Below are positions 19,840-29,828 of a DNA stretch of 64,000 nt, one piece after another; the first letter of the stretch is position 1, and each line of letters begins with the position of its first letter. The DNA is from Flavobacterium lipolyticum (GTDB taxonomy: Bacteria > Bacteroidota > Bacteroidia > Flavobacteriales > Flavobacteriaceae): NCBI RefSeq assembly GCF_020905335.1, contig NZ_JAJJMN010000001.1, positions 248,001 through 312,000 of the forward strand, in the 5' to 3' direction. Under the pieces are notes generated by a model, which was not told the origin of the DNA, ran no database searches, and saw only the letters and a list, made by a program, of their open reading frames with translations. Both the position numbers and the translations under genes were made by a program.

Positions 19840-20601
19840 TTAAACTAAACTATTCTTAAATGTTTCTCTTCTAAAAAACAAATCCAACTCTTCATTTATC
19901 TTATTCCCACTTCCTAACTTACTAGCATTCTCTTGATTAAATTGTATTGTTTCCAATAAAAAATCGGTTATTAAAGTTTCTTTAGGGTGCAAATATTTTT
20001 CATCCTGACCGGCTTTTATATTTTGCAACTCTATTATTTTCTCTTGTATATTTTGTGGTGCAATTGGCAATAAATCGGCAAAAGCAACGGGTGGAAAAGT
20101 ATTCTTTTCTATAATCCATTTTCCTGCTAAAGCTGTTCTTAAAGCGTAGAAATAACTCTTTAGTTTTACTTCTTCCATTTCGCATACTTCCATAAAGTTT
20201 TTCGTTGTTCCTAAATAGTGGTGTAAAACCGCTATTGGTGAAAAACATTCAACGGCTAAATCTTGCATTTGTTTTACAAAATCATCCTCCTGAAAATATA
20301 CAACTGGCGAAAACAACCACTCAATCAAAGCTGTATTAGATTTTGCTAATAACTTTACAGATTTACGTAAATCCCAGCCAGAACCGTCAAGGTCATCTTC
20401 GGTCATGAATTCTATTACGTCTGGCTTTTCCCAAAGCGACAAATAGTATTCTGGTTTGTGTTTGTATATAAAACGAATATCATAATCGCTGTCCGGAGAA
20501 GCAAATCCCCACGCACGACTTCCAGATTCTACTGCAAAAAGTACCTCTACATCTTTCTGCTTTTCTATTTCTTTTAATTTTTCTAATATTTTTTCTTTCA
20601 T
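19840..20601 (-). CDS. RlaP-type Pol-beta nucleotidyltransferase, copy 2 (253 aa)
   Basis: The catalytic signature GSRAWGF followed by SDYDIRFIY (residues 28-42) is typical of the RlaP/YcgL branch. The helical region LRTALAGKWI, and the Glu/Leu-rich C-terminus, agree with the family. I start at ATG 20601 (MKEKIL), since the 12 upstream residues of the longer frame overlap the promoter. It is the first gene of the RlaP pair. Its upstream region shares a 32-bp element with the helicase-nuclease gene. Confidence 0.85.
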   Translation of the reverse strand: MKEKILEKLKEIEKQKDVEVLFAVESGSRAWGFASPDSDYDIRFIYKHKPEYYLSLWEKPDVIEFMTEDDLDGSGWDLRKSVKLLAKSNTALIEWLFSPVVYFQEDDFVKQMQDLAVECFSPIAVLHHYLGTTKNFMEVCEMEEVKLKSYFYALRTALAGKWIIEKNTFPPVAFADLLPIAPQNIQEKIIELQNIKAGQDEKYLHPKETLITDFLLETIQFNQENASKLGSGNKINEELDLFFRRETFKNSLV

Positions 20602-20607
20602 GATTGT

Positions 20608-20656
20608 TTTCAATGTAAATAAACAAAAAGCCTTCAAATCAAGTACGAATACCTAA
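20608..20656 (-). promoter_or_regulatory. Promoter region of the RlaP pair with shared 32-bp element
   Basis: The 32 bp at 20625-20656 match 14215-14246 at 28 of 32 positions and contain the TTTG that would be the -33 box. A degenerate -7 (TACATTG) follows at about the spacing seen in front of the helicase. Confidence 0.45.
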
Positions 20657-20832: not shown

Positions 20833-21630
20833 CTAAATCCCAAAAAAACTCTTAGAATTTCGAGTCGTTTCTTCCGCCACTTGAGCTAAAGTAATTCCTT
20901 TAAACTGGGCAATGGTGCCGGCCACATACGGCAGAAATGCAGGTTCGCAACGGCGTTCGTGGTATTTCTTCAAAAGGCTGTTCGGCACATTTTTAGGAAG
21001 CATAAAGGGCGCATCGGTTTCGATCATCAGGCGGTCGAGCGGTACGTATTGAATCACTTCTTTTAAATGAGCGAAACGTTTGGTATCAGAAATCGCGCCG
21101 GTAAAACCCAGATAAAATCCGTTATCGAGATAGGTTTTGGCTTCTTGCAGCGTTCCCGTAAAACAATGCACCATGGCTTTGGGCAATTGCGGTAAATAAT
21201 CTTTGGTAATGTCCATAAACTTGGTAAAAGCAGCTCTTTCGTGCAAAAACAAAGGTTTCTGTACTTCAATCGCCAATTCTAGTTGGGCTTTATAACAGGT
21301 TTCCTGTACATTTCTGGGCGAAAAGTCACGATCAAAATCGAGTCCGCATTCGCCAACTGAAACGACTTGTTTCTGCTTTAATAAATTTCGAAGTTTCCAA
21401 ATACTCTGCGCATCAAAACTCTTCGCATCATGCGGGTGTATTCCCGCCGTTGCATACAGCACACCCGGATACTGCCTCGCCATCTTCGAGGATTCTTCAC
21501 TGTTTCGTATGCTTGTGCCCGTAAGGATCATCTGCGATACGTCGGCATCAAGTGCGTCTTGTACGACATCGTCTGTGTCGTTTTGGAATTGTTTATTCGT
21601 TAAATTAATTCCTATGTCTATATATGTCAT
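20833..21630 (-). CDS. tatD: TatD-family metal-dependent nuclease (265 aa)
   Basis: TIM-barrel hydrolase with the expected motifs: DIGINLTN at the start, a His motif HPHD, GECGLDFD, FLHERAAF, MVHCFTG and ETDAPF before the C-terminal LPYVAGTIAQ. Family members are 3' exonucleases on DNA and RNA. Full length for the family. It sits between the RlaP pair and rtcB on the same strand, but with its own intergenic spacers on both sides. Participation in RNA end processing is plausible but not shown. Confidence 0.9.
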   Translation of the reverse strand: MTYIDIGINLTNKQFQNDTDDVVQDALDADVSQMILTGTSIRNSEESSKMARQYPGVLYATAGIHPHDAKSFDAQSIWKLRNLLKQKQVVSVGECGLDFDRDFSPRNVQETCYKAQLELAIEVQKPLFLHERAAFTKFMDITKDYLPQLPKAMVHCFTGTLQEAKTYLDNGFYLGFTGAISDTKRFAHLKEVIQYVPLDRLMIETDAPFMLPKNVPNSLLKKYHERRCEPAFLPYVAGTIAQFKGITLAQVAEETTRNSKSFFGI

Positions 21631-22560: not shown

Positions 22561-23982
22561 CTAATCCTCCTTACTCCCATCATCCGCCATTCTCACTAAT
22601 TTCGGTGTAAATTTAGCCACTACATCTACTAAATCCTCCTGCGCTTTCATCACCTGATGGATGTCTTTATAGGCCATTGGCGCCTCGTCCAGACCTGCTC
22701 CGATAAGCGTAACGCCATGATCGCTCAGGATTGATTTCATCTCGGATGGTGTAATGTTTTTAATCGCCTGAGTTCGGCTCATTTGTCTTCCCGCTCCGTG
22801 CGAAGCCGAATTGATCGCATTCTCCTCCCCTTTTCCTCTCACCAAAAATCCCGGTGCGGTCATACTTCCCGGAATGATTCCCATAACGCCTTTCCCGGCC
22901 GGAGTTGCTCCTTTTCTATGCACAATCACTTCTTCGCCGTTCCAGATTTCTTTCCAGGCAAAATTATGATGGTTCTCGACTTTGGCTAAAATCGTCGCTC
23001 CTAAAGCGCGTTCCATTTTGTTATGAATAATCTCGTGACAAGCCGAAGCGTAATCTCCCGCCAAATTCATCGCCATCCAGTATTCCTGACCCAATTGGGT
23101 GTTCATATCCAGATAGGCTAAGTTTTTCGCTACTTCCGGAAGTTTACAAACCTCTTTCGCAATTTTAGTATAATGTCCGGCGATTGTAGCTCCCATTCCG
23201 CGTGAACCCGAATGTGTTAACAAAGCGACATATTTTCCTTTTGGAATGTTCAAAACAGCATCGTCCTGAGCAAATTCCATGATTCCGAATTCCACAAAGT
23301 GATTTCCACCACCTGAAGATCCTAATTGTGACCAGGCTTTATCTTTTAAGTTTTTCACAAACGGATTCCTATTGAAAGTCTCGTTCTCCAAAACCGCATG
23401 ATCCGATTTGTACTGACCATGAAATCCGTGGCCCGCTCCAAAAATAGAATTCTTAATCAATTCTTTTTTGAATTTGGCTTCGTTTTCAAAGTAAAAAGCT
23501 TCCGGAATATCATAAACCGACAACGCCATTCTACACCCAATATCAACCCCAACACCATACGGAATAATGGCATTTTTTGTGGCCAGAACTCCACCAATCG
23601 GTAATCCGTAACCTTGGTGCGCGTCGGGCATTAAGGCTCCGGCAACGGTAACCGGTAATTTCATGGCTACTTCCATTTGTTTTCTGGCTCCGTCTTCGAT
23701 ATGATCCAGTCCGTAAGCCGAATACGCATTTGGATTTTGATTTAAAGCAATGAAATCTTCCGGTTTCTCGTTTGATTTTTCGATTAAAGCAACCGCCAGT
23801 TTGCTGAACACTTTATCGTCTATATAATTCTCCGGAGTTTCTAAGACGTTTTTGTAATAAGCGATCATTTCGTCTCTTGTAAATCCGTTTCTTTTGCTGT
23901 TTATTTTTAAGGCAATCCCGATTATTTTCCCTTCCGGAAATCCTAATTCTAATATTTCTGTACCGTTTATTTGTGTTTTCAT
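22561..23982 (-). CDS. rtcB: RtcB RNA-splicing ligase (473 aa)
   Basis: GTP- and Mn2+-dependent ligase that joins 2',3'-cyclic phosphate or 3'-phosphate ends to 5'-OH ends. All metal ligands are visible: D147 and C150 (GVDIGC), H228 (GGGNHFVE), H257 (THSGSRG) and H339 (NHHNF). The guanylylated His is H395 in SHGAGRQMSR. Length is typical of the longer bacterial form. No archease or RtcA gene is adjacent. Upstream is a copy of the 38-bp element also found before the HEPN-like gene and the RNA array. Confidence 0.95.
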   Translation of the reverse strand: MKTQINGTEILELGFPEGKIIGIALKINSKRNGFTRDEMIAYYKNVLETPENYIDDKVFSKLAVALIEKSNEKPEDFIALNQNPNAYSAYGLDHIEDGARKQMEVAMKLPVTVAGALMPDAHQGYGLPIGGVLATKNAIIPYGVGVDIGCRMALSVYDIPEAFYFENEAKFKKELIKNSIFGAGHGFHGQYKSDHAVLENETFNRNPFVKNLKDKAWSQLGSSGGGNHFVEFGIMEFAQDDAVLNIPKGKYVALLTHSGSRGMGATIAGHYTKIAKEVCKLPEVAKNLAYLDMNTQLGQEYWMAMNLAGDYASACHEIIHNKMERALGATILAKVENHHNFAWKEIWNGEEVIVHRKGATPAGKGVMGIIPGSMTAPGFLVRGKGEENAINSASHGAGRQMSRTQAIKNITPSEMKSILSDHGVTLIGAGLDEAPMAYKDIHQVMKAQEDLVDVVAKFTPKLVRMADDGSKED

Positions 23983-24026: not shown

Positions 24027-24064
24027 CAAAGGTTTTTTACTGCTGCGCAGTTATTTTAAAATCG
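24027..24064 (-). promoter_or_regulatory. Shared 38-bp element before rtcB (half-degenerate copy)
   Basis: On the plus strand it begins CAAAG and contains TGCGCAGTTATT, aligning base for base with the copies at 24636, 27654 and 27742. The promoter-distal TGCGCA half-site is missing; its position overlaps the end of the HEPN-like gene. It ends 45 bp before the rtcB ATG. Confidence 0.65.
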
Positions 24065-24625
24065 ACCACCATTTTCATCTTGCACTAATAAAATTTCATG
24101 AATTCTATTAATTTCAACTATTATTGGTTTCATTTCATATTCTACATTTAGCATCTTAAAAATATGCTGATCATAAAAATATGCTCTAAAAATTGCTCTT
24201 CCATCATTAAAATCATCTATTGGTCCCACATATTTTGGCATTACTATTCCAATAGTGAATTCTTCTAAAAGATCATCTAGTTTTTCATCAAAATGTTCAA
24301 TATAATTTCTCATATCTCTATTTTTTAAAACGCTTGAATCACTAACATCATAAATTTTACGAAGTTTTTCTCCTCTAATTCTATAATATCCTTTATCCTT
24401 TGAAGGCCAAAAAAATCGAGAAATTGCTCCTACATTCCCAATGATATTTTGAAGTATATCTAAAATTGCATCGTCATTTTTACAATGATGAATTCCATTT
24501 TTCCAAAATTTATTTAATGACTTAACATCATTCAAAATTGAACGTGTTTTATTTAATAAAGATTCAATATAGAAAGCTTCATTAAAAGGATGAATTTCAA
24601 ATTCTGAATTTCTCATATCTCTCAA
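24056..24625 (-). CDS. Hypothetical HEPN-like protein next to rtcB (189 aa)
   Basis: The protein is helical and cytoplasmic. Residues 106-111 read R-N-Y-I-E-H, the R-x4-H (R[ND]xxxH) motif of HEPN domains, many of which are ribonucleases in toxins and defence systems. The motif is in the expected helix before an acidic stretch (FDEKLDDLLEEF). Only one motif supports this, so the domain call is tentative. It lies between rtcB and the RING/TerD gene and has its own copy of the shared 38-bp element. ATG 24616 is an alternative start 9 bp downstream. Confidence 0.6.
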   Translation of the reverse strand: MRDMRNSEFEIHPFNEAFYIESLLNKTRSILNDVKSLNKFWKNGIHHCKNDDAILDILQNIIGNVGAISRFFWPSKDKGYYRIRGEKLRKIYDVSDSSVLKNRDMRNYIEHFDEKLDDLLEEFTIGIVMPKYVGPIDDFNDGRAIFRAYFYDQHIFKMLNVEYEMKPIIVEINRIHEILLVQDENGGRF

Positions 24626-24635
24626 TTTATTTTTT

Positions 24636-24673
24636 CAAAGATTCAAATAGTAATGCGCAATTATTTTGCGCAG
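24636..24673 (-). promoter_or_regulatory. Shared 38-bp promoter element before the HEPN-like gene
   Basis: On the minus strand CTGCGCAAAATAATTGCGCA places two TGCGCA half-sites 13 bp apart, then after about 10 bp comes AATCTTTG, a weak -7 box. It ends 11 bp before the ATG, so the operator overlaps or abuts the -33 region. Confidence 0.7.
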
Positions 24674-24933: not shown

Positions 24934-27174
24934 TTAATCAATTAATAATTGTGTCACAACTGCTGGATTCATCGCCCATTGTGCGGTATAAACCTCATCG
25001 GCAAATTTATCTTCGGTGATTGTTAGACCTTGAGCTTCCGCTTTAAGCTGTAACAAACTACCTATATTCAATTTACTGTTCAATTTGGCAAGCAAAGCCT
25101 GAACTCCTTTAAAGTCCAAACCACCCACAACCTGACCTCCAAAAGTCATTTCCAGCCAAACGATTTCTCTTTTGGCTACATCCAAAACTCCAAAAACCAA
25201 ACCTTTCGCCACATTCTGCGTCACACGAACCTGATGATCCACGCAAGACGGATCGTAAGCAACTCCTGTTTTTTCCGAAATTTTCATTGGGTGTTTACTA
25301 TTCATCCAACCTACTATCAAATTTGGCGTGATACTTCCGTTGCTGTAGGCATTGCAGGTAAAAGTCACAAACTTAGCTTTGGCTTTTGCCAATTCGTCGA
25401 TATTGATGTTGATATATTCGGCAGTTCCAATTTTATTCGGAATGCTTCTGATATCTCCACTATGCTGACAGCCCGTAGTCGTCAATCGGCTGAACGAACA
25501 AATATCAGAACGGTCTTCGTAGGCAATATGGCAGCTTAAATCCATATCCAGATGTTGAGCCGGTAAACCTGCACCCCACTGCATAAACAATCGCACTTCG
25601 TTGCCTTCAATCGGGAAACGTGTTCCCATTAAAGCCACCGGTAAATCCTGAACCGTATCACTACGATCCCCTATTGAAACCGGAATGTTGAACAATTGCG
25701 GATCGATATAGATGGTTTTATTGGTGTTTTTAACCGCTGCGAATCTTTTTTTCATCGCCAAAAGACACAAATCCTCAATCTGATTTTTCATCTCCTCCAG
25801 CTGCGATTCATCATACAAATTCAACAATGCGTTTGGATTCACTCTTTTATTGGTTCCTCCTAAAGGTTTTACACTTCTTTGTATGTTTTTATCAAAATAA
25901 TTTGATGCATACATGTTCAGCGTAAAGATCAGTCTAGCCGGAACTTTATCGATAATTTCAGAAAAATGAGCAATGGTTTCATCAGCCCCAAACCAAAGCA
26001 TATTCGAAAATAAAGAACGGGCAAACAAACCCGGACGTTGCTTTAACAACGCAAATGTTTTATCGGCATCAAACTTTAACCTTGACGAATTTACTTTCCC
26101 CTGCCAAACGTCATATACCTGATTGTAAAATACATCCAATAAAAAATTCAATTTCTCAAATCCTTTTCTTTTGCTGTATTCTGCCAAACGCAAGGCACGG
26201 ATAAAACGAACCCACATTCCTCTTTTTGGATGCATCGTTTCGCACATGGCTTCAACTTCCATATCCATATTATTCAACCAGTTGGCAACCATCAAACATC
26301 CTTTTCTTGAATATTTCAATTTCAAATCTTTCTGAGACGCCATTCTCGCCTGCACACTTGTATCCAAAACAGTATAAAAATGCTGTCCATTTTTAGCGGC
26401 TCTTTTAACAATGGTTTTTGGCTCAATGATCTGAAGCATTCCCGTATTCTTAAACCATAAATATCTTAAAATATCTGTTGGTGTTTTCAAAAATTGCGAT
26501 ACTTCTTCTTCTTTACCGTTTTCAATCAAAAGATCGATTACAAGCATTAAAGTTTCCTTCATTGCTACCTCAGTTTTTGGTAAAGGCAAGTACTGCATAA
26601 CCATTTTTAAGCTATCTGTCTGAGTAGCATCTAAAGCAGTTTTGGATTGCAATAAGGATATATAGAAATCATTTAAATCTTTTTCGGACCACAATTCCAG
26701 CATTTTTAATTTGCTTCCCTGTCCCACTTTTTCGATTTTACCAAATTCAAAAGGAGTTCCACAAAATGGACAACCGTTGTATCTTTCTAACGGAAAAGTA
26801 TTATCAGGAATGATATGTCCACAGGATAAAGTTGTTCCGTTTTTAGTTTTAAAAACATTTCCGAAATATGTACTAATATGATCCAAAACAGATTCTCCAG
26901 TTGGAACATTCCATTCTTTCACCAATGGTGTCCAGTTTTTATCCGTTCCTAAAACTTCTCTCAAAACTTCTAAAACCTCAACTTTGTAAGTCGGGCTTAC
27001 GTTGTTTAAAGCCTGAAGCAATGACTCCGAAAATGTAAATCCCAATTTTGAAACATTGGCTAACAAAACGGATGTTGTTCCTGATAAATTTTTAACGTCA
27101 TTCGCAATCATTTCTGATGGAATGAAAATAGCGTTCTGACGTAAACTGATTTTTAATAATGTTGTTGTTTTCAT
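24934..27174 (-). CDS. SCO0854/MXAN_6230-type RING and TerD-like protein (746 aa)
   Basis: Domains in order: a helical N-terminus (1-105); a zinc finger with C118-G-H120 and C135-PFC138, RING-like; a long helical region (160-510) with RPGLFARSL, a hallmark of this family; and a TerD-like beta domain (about 525-690) with MDLSCHIAYED and the IDELAKAKAKFVTFTCNAYS core. TerD domains bind Ca2+ and occur in stress and RNA-damage systems. The ATG lies about 22 nt after the last unit of the structured RNA array, so the array is in its leader. By inference it is a scaffold linking the array to repair enzymes. Confidence 0.75.
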   Translation of the reverse strand: MKTTTLLKISLRQNAIFIPSEMIANDVKNLSGTTSVLLANVSKLGFTFSESLLQALNNVSPTYKVEVLEVLREVLGTDKNWTPLVKEWNVPTGESVLDHISTYFGNVFKTKNGTTLSCGHIIPDNTFPLERYNGCPFCGTPFEFGKIEKVGQGSKLKMLELWSEKDLNDFYISLLQSKTALDATQTDSLKMVMQYLPLPKTEVAMKETLMLVIDLLIENGKEEEVSQFLKTPTDILRYLWFKNTGMLQIIEPKTIVKRAAKNGQHFYTVLDTSVQARMASQKDLKLKYSRKGCLMVANWLNNMDMEVEAMCETMHPKRGMWVRFIRALRLAEYSKRKGFEKLNFLLDVFYNQVYDVWQGKVNSSRLKFDADKTFALLKQRPGLFARSLFSNMLWFGADETIAHFSEIIDKVPARLIFTLNMYASNYFDKNIQRSVKPLGGTNKRVNPNALLNLYDESQLEEMKNQIEDLCLLAMKKRFAAVKNTNKTIYIDPQLFNIPVSIGDRSDTVQDLPVALMGTRFPIEGNEVRLFMQWGAGLPAQHLDMDLSCHIAYEDRSDICSFSRLTTTGCQHSGDIRSIPNKIGTAEYININIDELAKAKAKFVTFTCNAYSNGSITPNLIVGWMNSKHPMKISEKTGVAYDPSCVDHQVRVTQNVAKGLVFGVLDVAKREIVWLEMTFGGQVVGGLDFKGVQALLAKLNSKLNIGSLLQLKAEAQGLTITEDKFADEVYTAQWAMNPAVVTQLLID

Positions 27175-27196: not shown

Positions 27197-27604
27197 GATA
27201 ATGGTGCTTCTGATTCTACCTAAAAGATTTTGAAGTAAGAAGCACTTGACCTGAAATTGGAGTGTAATAGACTAACTAAGCTAAAATGGAGCGGGCGACC
27301 GCGAAGAAGTAAGTTAATCTTGACCCTCATTTTATTAATGATAATTTTAAAACTTGCCGACTCGAACGGGAAATACCAATGTTCTGAAGTAAGTTTTAAT
27401 TGATCATCAATAGTGAAACAGATGGGATTCGAACCCACGACCCGGACATTAGAAGTGTACGAAGTAAGTTTTGATTGACCTTTTACCGATAATCTCAAAA
27501 CTACCTGCTCTACCGCTGAGCTACTGCTTCATAATAATTGAATAAAAAGGTAATGGTGTAAGTGTGTACGTTGGAAAGTTTTCTGAAGTAACTCAAACTT
27601 GACC
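27197..27604 (-). ncRNA. Array of five covarying structured RNA units, one inside a tRNA-like RNA
   Basis: On the minus strand five exact-length 20-nt blocks occur (27585-27604, 27461-27480, 27386-27405, 27306-27325, 27232-27251), each GGTCAA (GATCAA in unit 3), an 8-nt arm, then TACTTC. Each arm is complementary to a second 8-nt block in its unit, which is followed by one base and ATTAYM (ATTATC, ATTACC or ATTACA). Arms: GTTTGAGT/ACTTACAC, TCAAAACT/AGTTTTGA, TTAAAACT/AGTTTTAA, GATTAACT/AGTTAGTC, GTGCTTCT/AGAAGCAC. Three are perfect; units 1 and 4 use G-U pairs on the minus strand only, and unit 1 has one mismatch. Loops are 20-31 nt. Spacing is about 75-80 nt for units 2-5. Unit 2 is permuted and sits in a tRNA-like body. 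Confidence 0.85.
27414..27530 (-). tRNA. tRNA-like RNA with a large structured insert at the anticodon
   Basis: The minus strand shows an acceptor stem GAAGCAG/CTGTTTC (7 bp with one G-U), T8-A9, a D arm GCTC-AGCGGTA-GAGC and a T arm GTGGG-TTCGAAT-CCCAT, then A73; CCA is not encoded. The 5' half reaches a would-be anticodon loop TTTTGAG (TTG in the 34-36 position), but the 3' strand of the anticodon stem is replaced by unit 2 of the array. Total 117 nt. The arm AGTTTTGA containing the anticodon pairs with TCAAAACT in the insert. Probably not a translating tRNA; it could be a repair substrate or a decoy. Confidence 0.6.
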
Positions 27605-27653: not shown

Positions 27654-27691
27654 CAAAGATTTTAAAACCAGTGCGCAGTTATTCTGCGTAG
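27654..27691 (-). promoter_or_regulatory. Shared 38-bp element, proximal copy before the RNA array
   Basis: The minus strand shows CTACGCAGAATAACTGCGCA followed by TTTTAAAATCTTTG, aligned base for base with the copies at 24636 and 27742. It ends 50 bp before the first GGTCAA of the array. Confidence 0.65.
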
Positions 27692-27741
27692 TAAATTTTT
27701 TGTTTCATTTTTTAGAAATACTATTCGTTTTATTTCCTGAG

Positions 27742-27779
27742 CAAAGATTTTAAAACTACTACGCAATTATTTTGCGCAG
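27742..27779 (-). promoter_or_regulatory. Shared 38-bp element, distal copy before the RNA array
   Basis: The minus strand shows CTGCGCAAAATAATTGCGTA then TTTTAAAATCTTTG. It is 88 bp from the proximal copy, and flanking sequence is also similar, so the pair arose by local duplication. Confidence 0.65.
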
Positions 27780-27824
27780 TTAAAAAAGAATTTTAAATTT
27801 GAGTAAATATTAATTTTAAAAAAG

Positions 27825-28790: not shown

Positions 28791-29828
28791 ATGTCACAAA
28801 ACAAAAACGCCCTAATTCGGTACAAAACGATAGACAAATGTCTTCAAAACAAATATCGGCAATGGACTTTAGACGACTTAATCGAATGCTGCTCTGATGC
28901 TTTGTTTGAATACGAAGGTCGAGCCAACCCCATCAGCAAGCGCACCATTCAGATGGATATTCAGCTCATGCGAAGTGAGAAACTGGGGTACAATGCCCCA
29001 ATTGTAGTATATGATAAAAAGTACTATAAATATGAAGACGACGAATTCACCATAACCGATATACCCCTAACCGAAACAGACATGAATGTGCTCACCGAAA
29101 CTGTTTCGATGTTAAAACAGTTTAAAGATTTCTCCCTCTTTAATGATGTATCGGATATTCTACAGCGTTTGGAGGATAAAATCTACGCCGAAAAATCGCA
29201 TACCAAACCCGTTATCTATCTCGACAAAAATGAAAAACTAAAAGGACTTCATTATCTGGATGAGATTTATCAGGCCATCATCAAAAAGGTGACCTTGGTT
29301 ATTACCTATAAATCGTTTAAATCTCAGGAAGAAAGCAAATTTCATTTTCACCCTTTTATTTTAAAGGAATTCAATAACCGATGGTTTTTGGTAGGAAAGA
29401 AAAAAAGTTCACAACCTATTACCAATTTAGCCCTGGACAGAATCATTGCCATAGATTACGATTTCAACATTCCCTATTTAGAAGAAAACTTTGATGCAGA
29501 GCTCTTTTATAAAAACGTAATTGGGGTAACCGTTAATTCAGGTTTACAACCCAAAAAGATCGAACTTTGGATAGATGCTGTCAACGCACCTTATGTGTTA
29601 ACCAAACCTCTGCATCACACACAGCGACTCATTAAAGAAAATGACGACAAAAGTATTATCGTTCATTTGTTCATTTCTCCAAATTACGAAATGGAACGTT
29701 TGCTTTTAGGATTTGGCCACGGCATCGAAATTATCAAACCTGAAGATCTGAGAAATAGGGTAAAAGCTATACTTCAAAAGGCAGTTTCAAGATATGAACA
29801 CAAAAATACCATTGAATTAAAGCCATAA
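28791..29828 (+). CDS. WYL-domain transcriptional regulator (345 aa)
   Basis: An N-terminal winged HTH (about 10-80; LIRYKTIDKCLQ through RTIQMDIQLMR) precedes a WYL domain (about 165-260; VTLVITYKSF, then HPFILKEFNNRWFLVGK and LALDRI) and a C-terminal WCX-like extension (ending RNRVKAILQKAV). WYL domains sense ligands, probably nucleic acid fragments or nucleotides, and are frequent regulators of defence and RNA-repair loci. It is a candidate regulator of the shared TGCGCA element, but nothing in the sequence proves that link. Confidence 0.85.
   Translation: MSQNKNALIRYKTIDKCLQNKYRQWTLDDLIECCSDALFEYEGRANPISKRTIQMDIQLMRSEKLGYNAPIVVYDKKYYKYEDDEFTITDIPLTETDMNVLTETVSMLKQFKDFSLFNDVSDILQRLEDKIYAEKSHTKPVIYLDKNEKLKGLHYLDEIYQAIIKKVTLVITYKSFKSQEESKFHFHPFILKEFNNRWFLVGKKKSSQPITNLALDRIIAIDYDFNIPYLEENFDAELFYKNVIGVTVNSGLQPKKIELWIDAVNAPYVLTKPLHHTQRLIKENDDKSIIVHLFISPNYEMERLLLGFGHGIEIIKPEDLRNRVKAILQKAVSRYEHKNTIELKP

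What the first reader, a model, noticed from the sequence alone, without database searches (positions are those of the whole stretch)
27197..27604. Five covarying RNA units form an array in front of the RING/TerD gene
On the minus strand five exact-length blocks (GGTCAA + 8-nt arm + TACTTC) recur, and each arm is complementary to a second 8-nt block in its unit that is followed by N-ATTAYM. The arms differ between units yet stay paired (TCAAAACT/AGTTTTGA, TTAAAACT/AGTTTTAA, GTGCTTCT/AGAAGCAC and two with G-U), while the flanks are conserved. This is covariation, not sequence duplication. The wobbles are G-U only on the minus strand and would be A-C on the plus strand, which fixes the transcribed strand. 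I know of no RNA family with this layout.
Basis: seen in the sequence. Interest (0 to 1): 0.97.

Follow-up and report, generated by a model that had tools for sequence, protein, structure and literature searches.

The report
Y-RNA-like array displaying tRNA pieces
In front of a gene in an RNA-repair cluster of a Flavobacterium lies a string of five small RNA stems, several carrying a piece that looks like part of a transfer RNA; it appears to be a new variant of the Y RNAs that work with the Ro60 protein in RNA quality control, here paired with a different, probably Ro60-like protein.

Summary
Five units lie on the minus strand, each an outer stem P1, a CAA/N-AUU loop, an 8-bp helix P2 and UACUUC. 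Unit 2 sits inside the anticodon arm of a tRNA-like body; others carry tRNA-like pieces (T arm surely, acceptor-CCA and anticodon loop less surely). All 79 related loci fetched have at least one unit before the same gene. In 395 Bacteroidota genomes, hits of a covariance model of the hairpin unit coincide with that gene (11 of 11; one further hit is chance). The gene encodes a RING/helical/TerD protein whose helical domain, modelled alone, matches Ro60 best (remote fold match only). Ten Ro60 loci of the genus share neighbours (WYL, p230, RtcB, TatD in 7-9 of 10), an operator, and an array with the same UUACUUC; its tRNA-bearing unit resembles Rfam YrlA in 2 of 3 loci tested. There the tRNA is circularly permuted, as in known Y RNAs; in the window it is in natural order. 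I read the array as Y-RNA-type RNA partnered with a Ro60-like RING/TerD protein in an RtcB repair locus: a new variant of a known kind. Transcription and binding are inferred.

The parts
27549..27604 (-). Unit 1 (hairpin form): P1 GGU/ACC, extended outward by GAAUAAAA/UUUUAUUC; IL1 CAA / C-AUU; P2 GTTTGAGT/ACTTACAC (7 of 8); UACUUC; loop with CUUUCCAA, anticodon-loop-like in 7 of 32 distinct unit-1 cargos
   Evidence: (CM R1, 53.3 bits)
27414..27530 (-). Unit 2 (permuted form): tRNA-like body GAAGCAG..CTGTTTC with the unit in its anticodon arm; without the insert the anticodon stem is GGACA/TGTCC with loop CTTCTAA
   Evidence: (RF00005); MFE
27461..27502 (-). The Y-type stem inside unit 2: arm' AGTTTTGA, G-ATTATC, cap loop ggtaaaa, GGTCAA, arm TCAAAACT, TACTTC
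27340..27405 (-). Unit 3 (hairpin form, GATCAA): P2 TTAAAACT/AGTTTTAA; cargo with a T-arm-like piece CCCGTTCGAGTCGGC (27356-27370)
   Evidence: (50.3 bits)
27263..27325 (-). Unit 4 (hairpin form): P2 GATTAACT/AGTTAGTC; cargo GCGG-TCGC-CCGC-T-CCA (27287-27302), acceptor-minihelix/CCA-like (suggestive)
   Evidence: (48.1 bits)
27197..27251 (-). Unit 5 (hairpin form): P2 GTGCTTCT/AGAAGCAC; cargo AAAATCTTTTAGGTAGAATC, anticodon-loop-like (suggestive); ends 22 nt before the ATG at 27174
   Evidence: (56.2 bits)
27670..27692 (-). Palindromic operator-like site ACTACGCA-N7-TGCGCACT beside AAATCTTTG (27654-27662; resembles a Bacteroidota -7 box, consensus recalled); another at 27758-27780 and a third starting at 24673
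   Evidence: within 1200 nt upstream of the gene in 77 of 79 loci, 0 of 79 inside the ORF
24934..27174 (-). 746-aa protein: weak RING/zinc match (116-139), helical domain (~160-480) matching Ro60 best, TerD domain (~513-700)
22561..23982 (-). RtcB RNA ligase
   Evidence: PF01139, E 1.4e-82
19840..20637 (-). RlaP, RNA-repair nucleotidyltransferase
   Evidence: PF10127, E 1.3e-76
20833..21630 (-). TatD nuclease
   Evidence: PF01026, E 3.6e-71
28791..29828 (+). WYL-domain regulator, divergent; candidate binder of the operators (inferred)
   Evidence: PF25583, PF13280
27996..28688 (+). p230, no Pfam hit; also beside Ro60 in 7 of 10 Ro60 loci of the genus

Best explanation
The array is a Y-RNA-type RNA of the minus strand, probably transcribed from an operator-controlled promoter, and partnered with the protein encoded just behind it, a RING / Ro60-like / TerD protein. 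Each unit is one protein-binding stem (P1, CAA/N-AUU internal loop, 8-bp P2, UACUUC). The UACUUC side faces a cargo: a whole tRNA body in unit 2, a T arm in unit 3, and perhaps an acceptor-CCA minihelix in unit 4 and anticodon-loop hairpins in units 1 and 5. By analogy with Ro60/Y RNA (RYPER), the stem would dock on the Ro60-like ring and the tRNA-like cargo would tether or gate tRNA-handling enzymes (PNPase, RtcB, RlaP) or rival damaged tRNAs. Shown: structure with covariation, T-arm mimicry, linkage to the gene, and a locus shared with Ro60/Y-type arrays. Inferred: transcription, binding, action on damaged tRNA.
Confidence: 0.78

Rival explanations
1. Decoy or sensor of tRNA damage: the displayed tRNA pieces are bait for anticodon nucleases and other tRNA-cutting enzymes; cutting or occupancy alters expression or activity of the repair locus. 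Compatible with the Y-RNA reading; a different statement of what the RNA does.
For: Cargos resemble several tRNA regions. After leaving out the insert, 41 of 88 tRNA bodies have loop CTTTTAA (UUU) and 17 have CTTCTAA (UCU); both are known anticodon-nuclease targets (recalled). Hughes et al. suggest that the YrlA tRNA-like domain could competitively inhibit an anticodon nuclease (PMC7790460 passage).
Against: Acceptor and anticodon mimicry rest on patterns defined after seeing the data, in related sequences. Hughes et al. detected no YrlA fragments (same passages). 44 of 161 distinct cargos fit none of the three tRNA patterns.
Confidence: 0.3
2. Cis-acting leader: the array is the 5' leader of the 746-aa gene's mRNA; the protein or a repair enzyme binds it and represses its own translation until damaged tRNA competes (logic of the thrS operator, recalled).
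For: The units lie before the ATG in the same orientation in 79 of 79 loci; in most the left half of the last unit begins about 72-103 nt upstream.
Against: In the ten Ro60-linked loci the array lies behind Ro60, and before RtcB in the 8 that have it, as expected for trans-acting Y RNA. A tRNA body with natural ends should be cut out by RNase P/Z (inferred).
Confidence: 0.2
3. Bacterial tRNA intron: the ~45-nt insert in the anticodon arm is excised and RtcB joins the exons to a functional tRNA-Arg.
For: Leaving the insert out gives 5 of 5 anticodon-stem pairs in 79 of 88 bodies (best split chosen per body). RtcB is nearby in the window.
Against: The split point moves (after the second stem base in 64, third in 6, fourth or fifth in 9 of those 79); Hymenobacter L123 has, by eye, no separate anticodon loop; anticodons vary between species. 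The genome has two ordinary tRNA-Arg(tct). The other four units have no exon logic. RtcB was found near only 40 of 84 loci.
Confidence: 0.04
4. Array of small self-cleaving ribozymes, the conserved loops being the catalytic core.
For: Conserved unpaired blocks around a variable helix that tolerates circular permutation.
Against: No ribozyme family among the 11 Rfam matches up to E 10 within the array; a RAGATH-19 match (E 5.8) lies outside it and a group II intron match (E 8.3) is on the other strand. The same build occurs in Ro60-linked Y-type arrays, and linkage is to one protein gene.
Confidence: 0.03

Closest known systems
Bacterial Y RNA, YrlA type (Rfam RF02553)
   Same: Long basal stem with internal loop, tRNA-like domain with D, T and acceptor arms and the Y stem in the anticodon-arm position (structure line), found near rtcB.
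   Different: No YrlA match in the window; internal loop CAA/AUU; tRNA order natural, not permuted; five units in one array; partner lacks a Pfam TROVE match and has RING and TerD parts.
Ro60-linked arrays of the same genus (L189-L198 here)
   Same: Array, P2 of about 8-10 bp, UUACUUC, 3' AUU, cargo kinds, operator, WYL/p230/RtcB/TatD neighbours.
   Different: 5' GYCGU instead of GGUCAA; tRNA permuted; array behind Ro60, not before the partner gene; R1 does not cross-match.
MXAN_6230/SCO0854 family RING domain-containing protein (NF041916)
   Same: Only NCBIfam hit of the 746-aa protein (E 1.1e-35).
   Different: 123 bits against a cut-off of 600.
thrS operator and other tRNA-mimicking mRNA leaders (recalled)
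   Same: tRNA mimicry in front of a gene.
   Different: No evidence of translation control; the related arrays occur in another gene order.

Membership tests
Bacterial Y RNA (YrlA type) | Basal stem with conserved internal loop | tested here: met
   P1/IL1/P2 with covariation
Bacterial Y RNA (YrlA type) | tRNA-like domain (D, T, acceptor arms), Y stem at the anticodon-arm position | tested here: met
   RF00005 hit with insert in the anticodon arm; YrlA layout
Bacterial Y RNA (YrlA type) | tRNA domain circularly permuted, RNA ends in the Y stem | tested here: not met
   Natural order in the window; permuted in Ro60-linked L129
Bacterial Y RNA (YrlA type) | Match to Rfam RF02553 | tested here: not met
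   Not among matches up to E 10
Bacterial Y RNA (YrlA type) | Encoded near a Ro60 (PF05731) gene | tested here: not met
   No PF05731 in the own genome; the neighbour is Ro60-like by fold only
Bacterial Y RNA (YrlA type) | Binds Ro60 and an effector such as PNPase | not testable with these tools
   needs biochemistry
Ro60 / TROVE protein | TROVE sequence profile | tested here: not met
Ro60 / TROVE protein | Ring of HEAT-like helical repeats | tested here: inconclusive
Ro60 / TROVE protein | C-terminal vWA domain | tested here: not met
MXAN_6230/SCO0854 RING family (NF041916) | Score above the curated cut-off of 600 | tested here: not met
   123.1 bits
RtcB-spliced tRNA intron | Insert at a fixed point whose removal leaves a normal tRNA | tested here: not met
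   split point moves; L123 lacks its own anticodon loop
Known self-cleaving ribozymes | Match to an Rfam ribozyme family within the array | tested here: not met

The most novel reading that the evidence does not exclude
A second class of Ro60-type RNP: a RING / Ro60-like ring / TerD protein works with a multi-armed 'tRNA display' RNA whose arms separately present an anticodon loop, a T arm, an acceptor-CCA end and one whole tRNA body put back into natural order with free acceptor ends, so that it can be processed and tailed like a tRNA. It would sense or buffer damage to any part of a tRNA and feed an RtcB/RlaP repair locus.
Probability: 0.35. Interest if true: 0.93.

Novelty: new variant of a known kind. 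Interest (0 to 1): 0.83.

Why it matters
What Ro60 and Y RNAs do beside bacterial rtcBA is open: PMC7790460 says that its studies did not address their roles (passage). Here the same kind of locus exists with Ro60 in some Flavobacterium species and with a probable remote Ro60-like RING/TerD protein in others, each with its own matching array, so RNA and protein specificity can be swapped and tested. The cargos point to tRNA features that may be read. It would also give a large protein family (4380 proteins at E<=0.001 among 7995 candidates scored; most names shown read 'hypothetical protein' or 'RING finger family 4') a first hypothesis: RNA quality control.

Tried and rejected
tRNA intron joined by RtcB: my first idea; dropped because the split point moves, anticodons vary, ordinary tRNA-Arg(tct) exists, and L123 lacks its own anticodon loop. 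Ribozyme: no Rfam support. Phage origin: no relative of the protein in viral contigs by this scan. Chance CM hit in G436: inside a recF-like ORF. Sequence proof of TROVE homology: failed. A strict pattern for an ordinary tRNA-Arg gave none; a looser one found it twice. Units or T arms near the Variovorax, Streptomyces and Vibrio homologues: none convincing. Mutual exclusion of Ro60 and the 746-aa protein: 0 of 150 genomes have both (10 and 21 have one; 1.4 expected by my arithmetic, not significant), and record names point to F. pectinovorum and F. sp. 140616W15 with both. Operator control: a downstream stretch had the motif in 41 of 78 loci, so that stretch is no clean control; inside the ORF 0 of 79, far upstream 2 of 76.

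No title or abstract start in those listings showed this array, but Burroughs and Aravind 2016 and Sim et al. 2020 are not held, and Chen et al. 2014 was not looked up. I cannot say that it is unpublished.

Full report
OBSERVATION. The five blocks are real. With one mismatch allowed, GGTCAA-N8-TACTTC has 6 matches in the window against 0.18 expected; five are in the array and one is a stray at 1824. The unconstrained MFE fold of the 480-nt leader contains the P2 helices of units 2 to 5 and most of unit 1, and a tRNA cloverleaf with an extra arm. Unit 2 lies inside a tRNA-like body (RF00005, 27414-27530 minus, 45.7 bits). Its two arms flank a cap of 19 nt (ATTATC-ggtaaaa-GGTCAA), whereas in units 1, 3, 4 and 5 the arms flank a loop on the UACUUC side. 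So unit 2 is a circular permutation of the same stem.

CONSERVATION. A scan of genome contigs with the 746-aa protein behind the array returned 79 loci, mostly Flavobacterium, some other Bacteroidota. A regular expression for the left half finds at least one unit within 900 nt upstream in 79 of 79; L064, L066 and L076 show only one by that expression. Of 382 left halves found with a looser pattern, 355 have a partner arm, against 22 on average with shuffled arms. Some of the 84 partners assigned upstream ('T') are wrong: one search shows several that skip over another unit. I aligned 48 of 205 distinct hairpin sequences (76 distinct arm pairs), chosen by me for diversity. All 8 P2 pairs show changes on both sides (138 cells against 39.9 in shuffles; score 0.748 against 0.184). 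P1 inner pairs read GGU/ACC or GGU/AUC; by eye they are GGC/GCC in L066 and GGA/UUC in L125, while CAA, AUU and UACUUC mostly stay. In the unit-4 rows the outermost P1 pair is a G.A mismatch (ATTACA): these are the 9 unpaired cells of that pair.

DISTRIBUTION. The covariance model R1 (hairpin form only, stricter filters) hits 12 of 395 Bacteroidota genomes at E<=0.001, and the protein hits 11 of the same 395; all 11 are shared. The twelfth R1 genome (E 5e-4) is a chance hit inside a recF-like ORF. In the 11 shared genomes every R1 match listed lies just upstream of the gene. In another sample 4 of 199 family genomes hold the protein. More distant carriers on plasmid records: Hymenobacter L123 and Segatella L124 have units and a tRNA body with insert; Prevotella L125 has one unit and no tRNA. 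Homologues in Variovorax, Streptomyces and Vibrio showed none by eye.

tRNA BODIES. A script that required D-arm letters and acceptor and T-stem pairing found 91 bodies in 82 of 84 sequences tried; L061 and L076 gave none. I left out 3 without an insert; one of the 88 kept (in L072) has an insert without the unit motif. In 79 of the 88, a 5-bp anticodon stem forms when the insert is skipped: 64 split after the second base of the stem's 5' strand, 6 after the third, 9 after the fourth or fifth. The split was the best of several tried, so this is partly fitted. Loops are CTTTTAA in 41, CTTCTAA in 17, others in 30. The own genome has two ordinary tRNA-Arg(tct), so the interrupted one should not be needed for decoding.

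CARGOS. In hairpin units the loop side often resembles a piece of tRNA. Among 161 distinct cargos (269 units), a T arm (TTCRANY loop closed by at least 3 pairs) is in 43, against a mean of 0.125 in letter shuffles (max 2); in the unit-3 class it is 39 of 42. A stem followed by N-CCA is in 37 (8.95 expected, max 17), 30 of 46 in the unit-4 class. An anticodon-like loop is in 96 (13.8 expected, max 24), 22 of 22 in the unit-5 class, but this pattern also fires on T arms, and only 7 of 32 in the unit-1 class pass. 44 fit none. The T-arm result is strong. The other two were defined after looking and the sequences are related, so they are suggestions.

THE DECISIVE COMPARISON. The own genome has no PF05731 gene, but 10 of 150 genomes of the genus do. 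In those ten Ro60 loci, read over 15-16 kb each, Ro60 is followed by 2-4 strict units RTGYCRW-arm-TTACTTC. Neighbours found are RtcB in 8, WYL in 9, TatD in 7 and p230 in 7 of 10, with at least one copy of the operator in 10 of 10. The window has WYL, p230, operators, array, the 746-aa gene, RtcB and TatD: the same locus with a different protein and the array on its other side. A script gave 33 units with arm pairs; the inner P1 pairs are GU/AC 18, GC/GC 12, GU/GC 3 and never GC/AC (6.5 expected by my arithmetic; the script fixed the G and the C and left only Y and R free). Cargos include a tRNA, a T arm and a UUUCCAA loop, as in the window. In 7 of the 10 loci a cargo has a T arm followed by a D arm with TAGCTCAG, the order of a permuted tRNA (by eye). 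Rfam was run on three of the ten loci: L129 matches YrlA (E 8.6e-8 on 251 nt, 40.2 bits, below the gathering score 69) and L131 in part (E 4.9e-7); L130 does not. The YrlA structure line shows T arm, closed acceptor and D arm, with the Y stem where the anticodon arm would be. I therefore take the Ro60-linked arrays as Y-RNA arrays, and the window array as their relative with the tRNA in natural order.

LITERATURE SEEN. Passages only: PMC8394870 (YrlA stem tethers Rsr, tRNA-like domain binds PNPase), PMC7790460 (rsr-yrlBA-rtcBA operon, tRNA fragments, the authors' decoy idea), PMC11472068 (Y RNA superposes on tRNA with a circular permutation), PMC7824862 (ROT/TROVE protein with tRNA-like partner as an RNA-repair platform; RlaP), PMC7765460 (Ro60-related protein in a jumbo phage).

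MECHANISM. Shown: structure, covariation, T-arm mimicry, linkage to the gene, shared locus. Inferred: transcription from the operator-promoter region; binding of P1/IL1/P2/UACUUC by the Ro60-like domain; presentation of tRNA-like cargo to PNPase, RtcB, RlaP or tRNA nucleases. Whether the RNA acts as tether, decoy or sensor is open. The cis-leader reading is weakened, not excluded, by the array lying behind Ro60 in the sister loci.

VERDICT. A new variant of a known kind: a Y-RNA-type array that fails three tests of the YrlA family (no RF02553 match, not permuted, no PF05731 neighbour), so I do not file it as YrlA; it works like, and appears related to, the Ro60-linked arrays of the genus.

Noticed in passing
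L126, 2948-4600 and upstream of 5926: In Variovorax sp. SRS16 a distant homologue (25% identity) of the 746-aa protein lies near rtcR, and TGGCACGGGCATTGCA before it resembles a sigma-54 promoter (consensus recalled); the family may be part of RNA-repair regulons elsewhere.
   Followed up: partly
window, starting at 24673 minus: A third copy of the operator palindrome between the 746-aa gene and the p189/RtcB genes.
   Followed up: partly
window 24056-24625 minus: 189-aa protein (p189) without Pfam or NCBIfam match; a relative occurs in one Ro60 locus (L196) and near 5 of 84 array loci.
   Followed up: no
L029, L031, L044, L051, L078: Arrays with a second tRNA body with its own insert; in each, one insert splits the anticodon stem after its second base and the other lies after the fourth or fifth.
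   Followed up: partly
L064 6762 and L072 470: Array loci with further tRNA-like bodies: one intact, Phe-like (loop CTGAAAA, anticodon GAA); one with a long hairpin insert lacking the unit motif.
   Followed up: no
L003 1-912: Eight ordinary tRNA genes directly upstream of the array.
   Followed up: no
L198 (15001 bases, Ro60 locus): First unit with a cargo of unusual tRNA-like layout (GGATATCGTCTAATTGGTAAGAC within it), possibly a decayed permuted tRNA.
   Followed up: no
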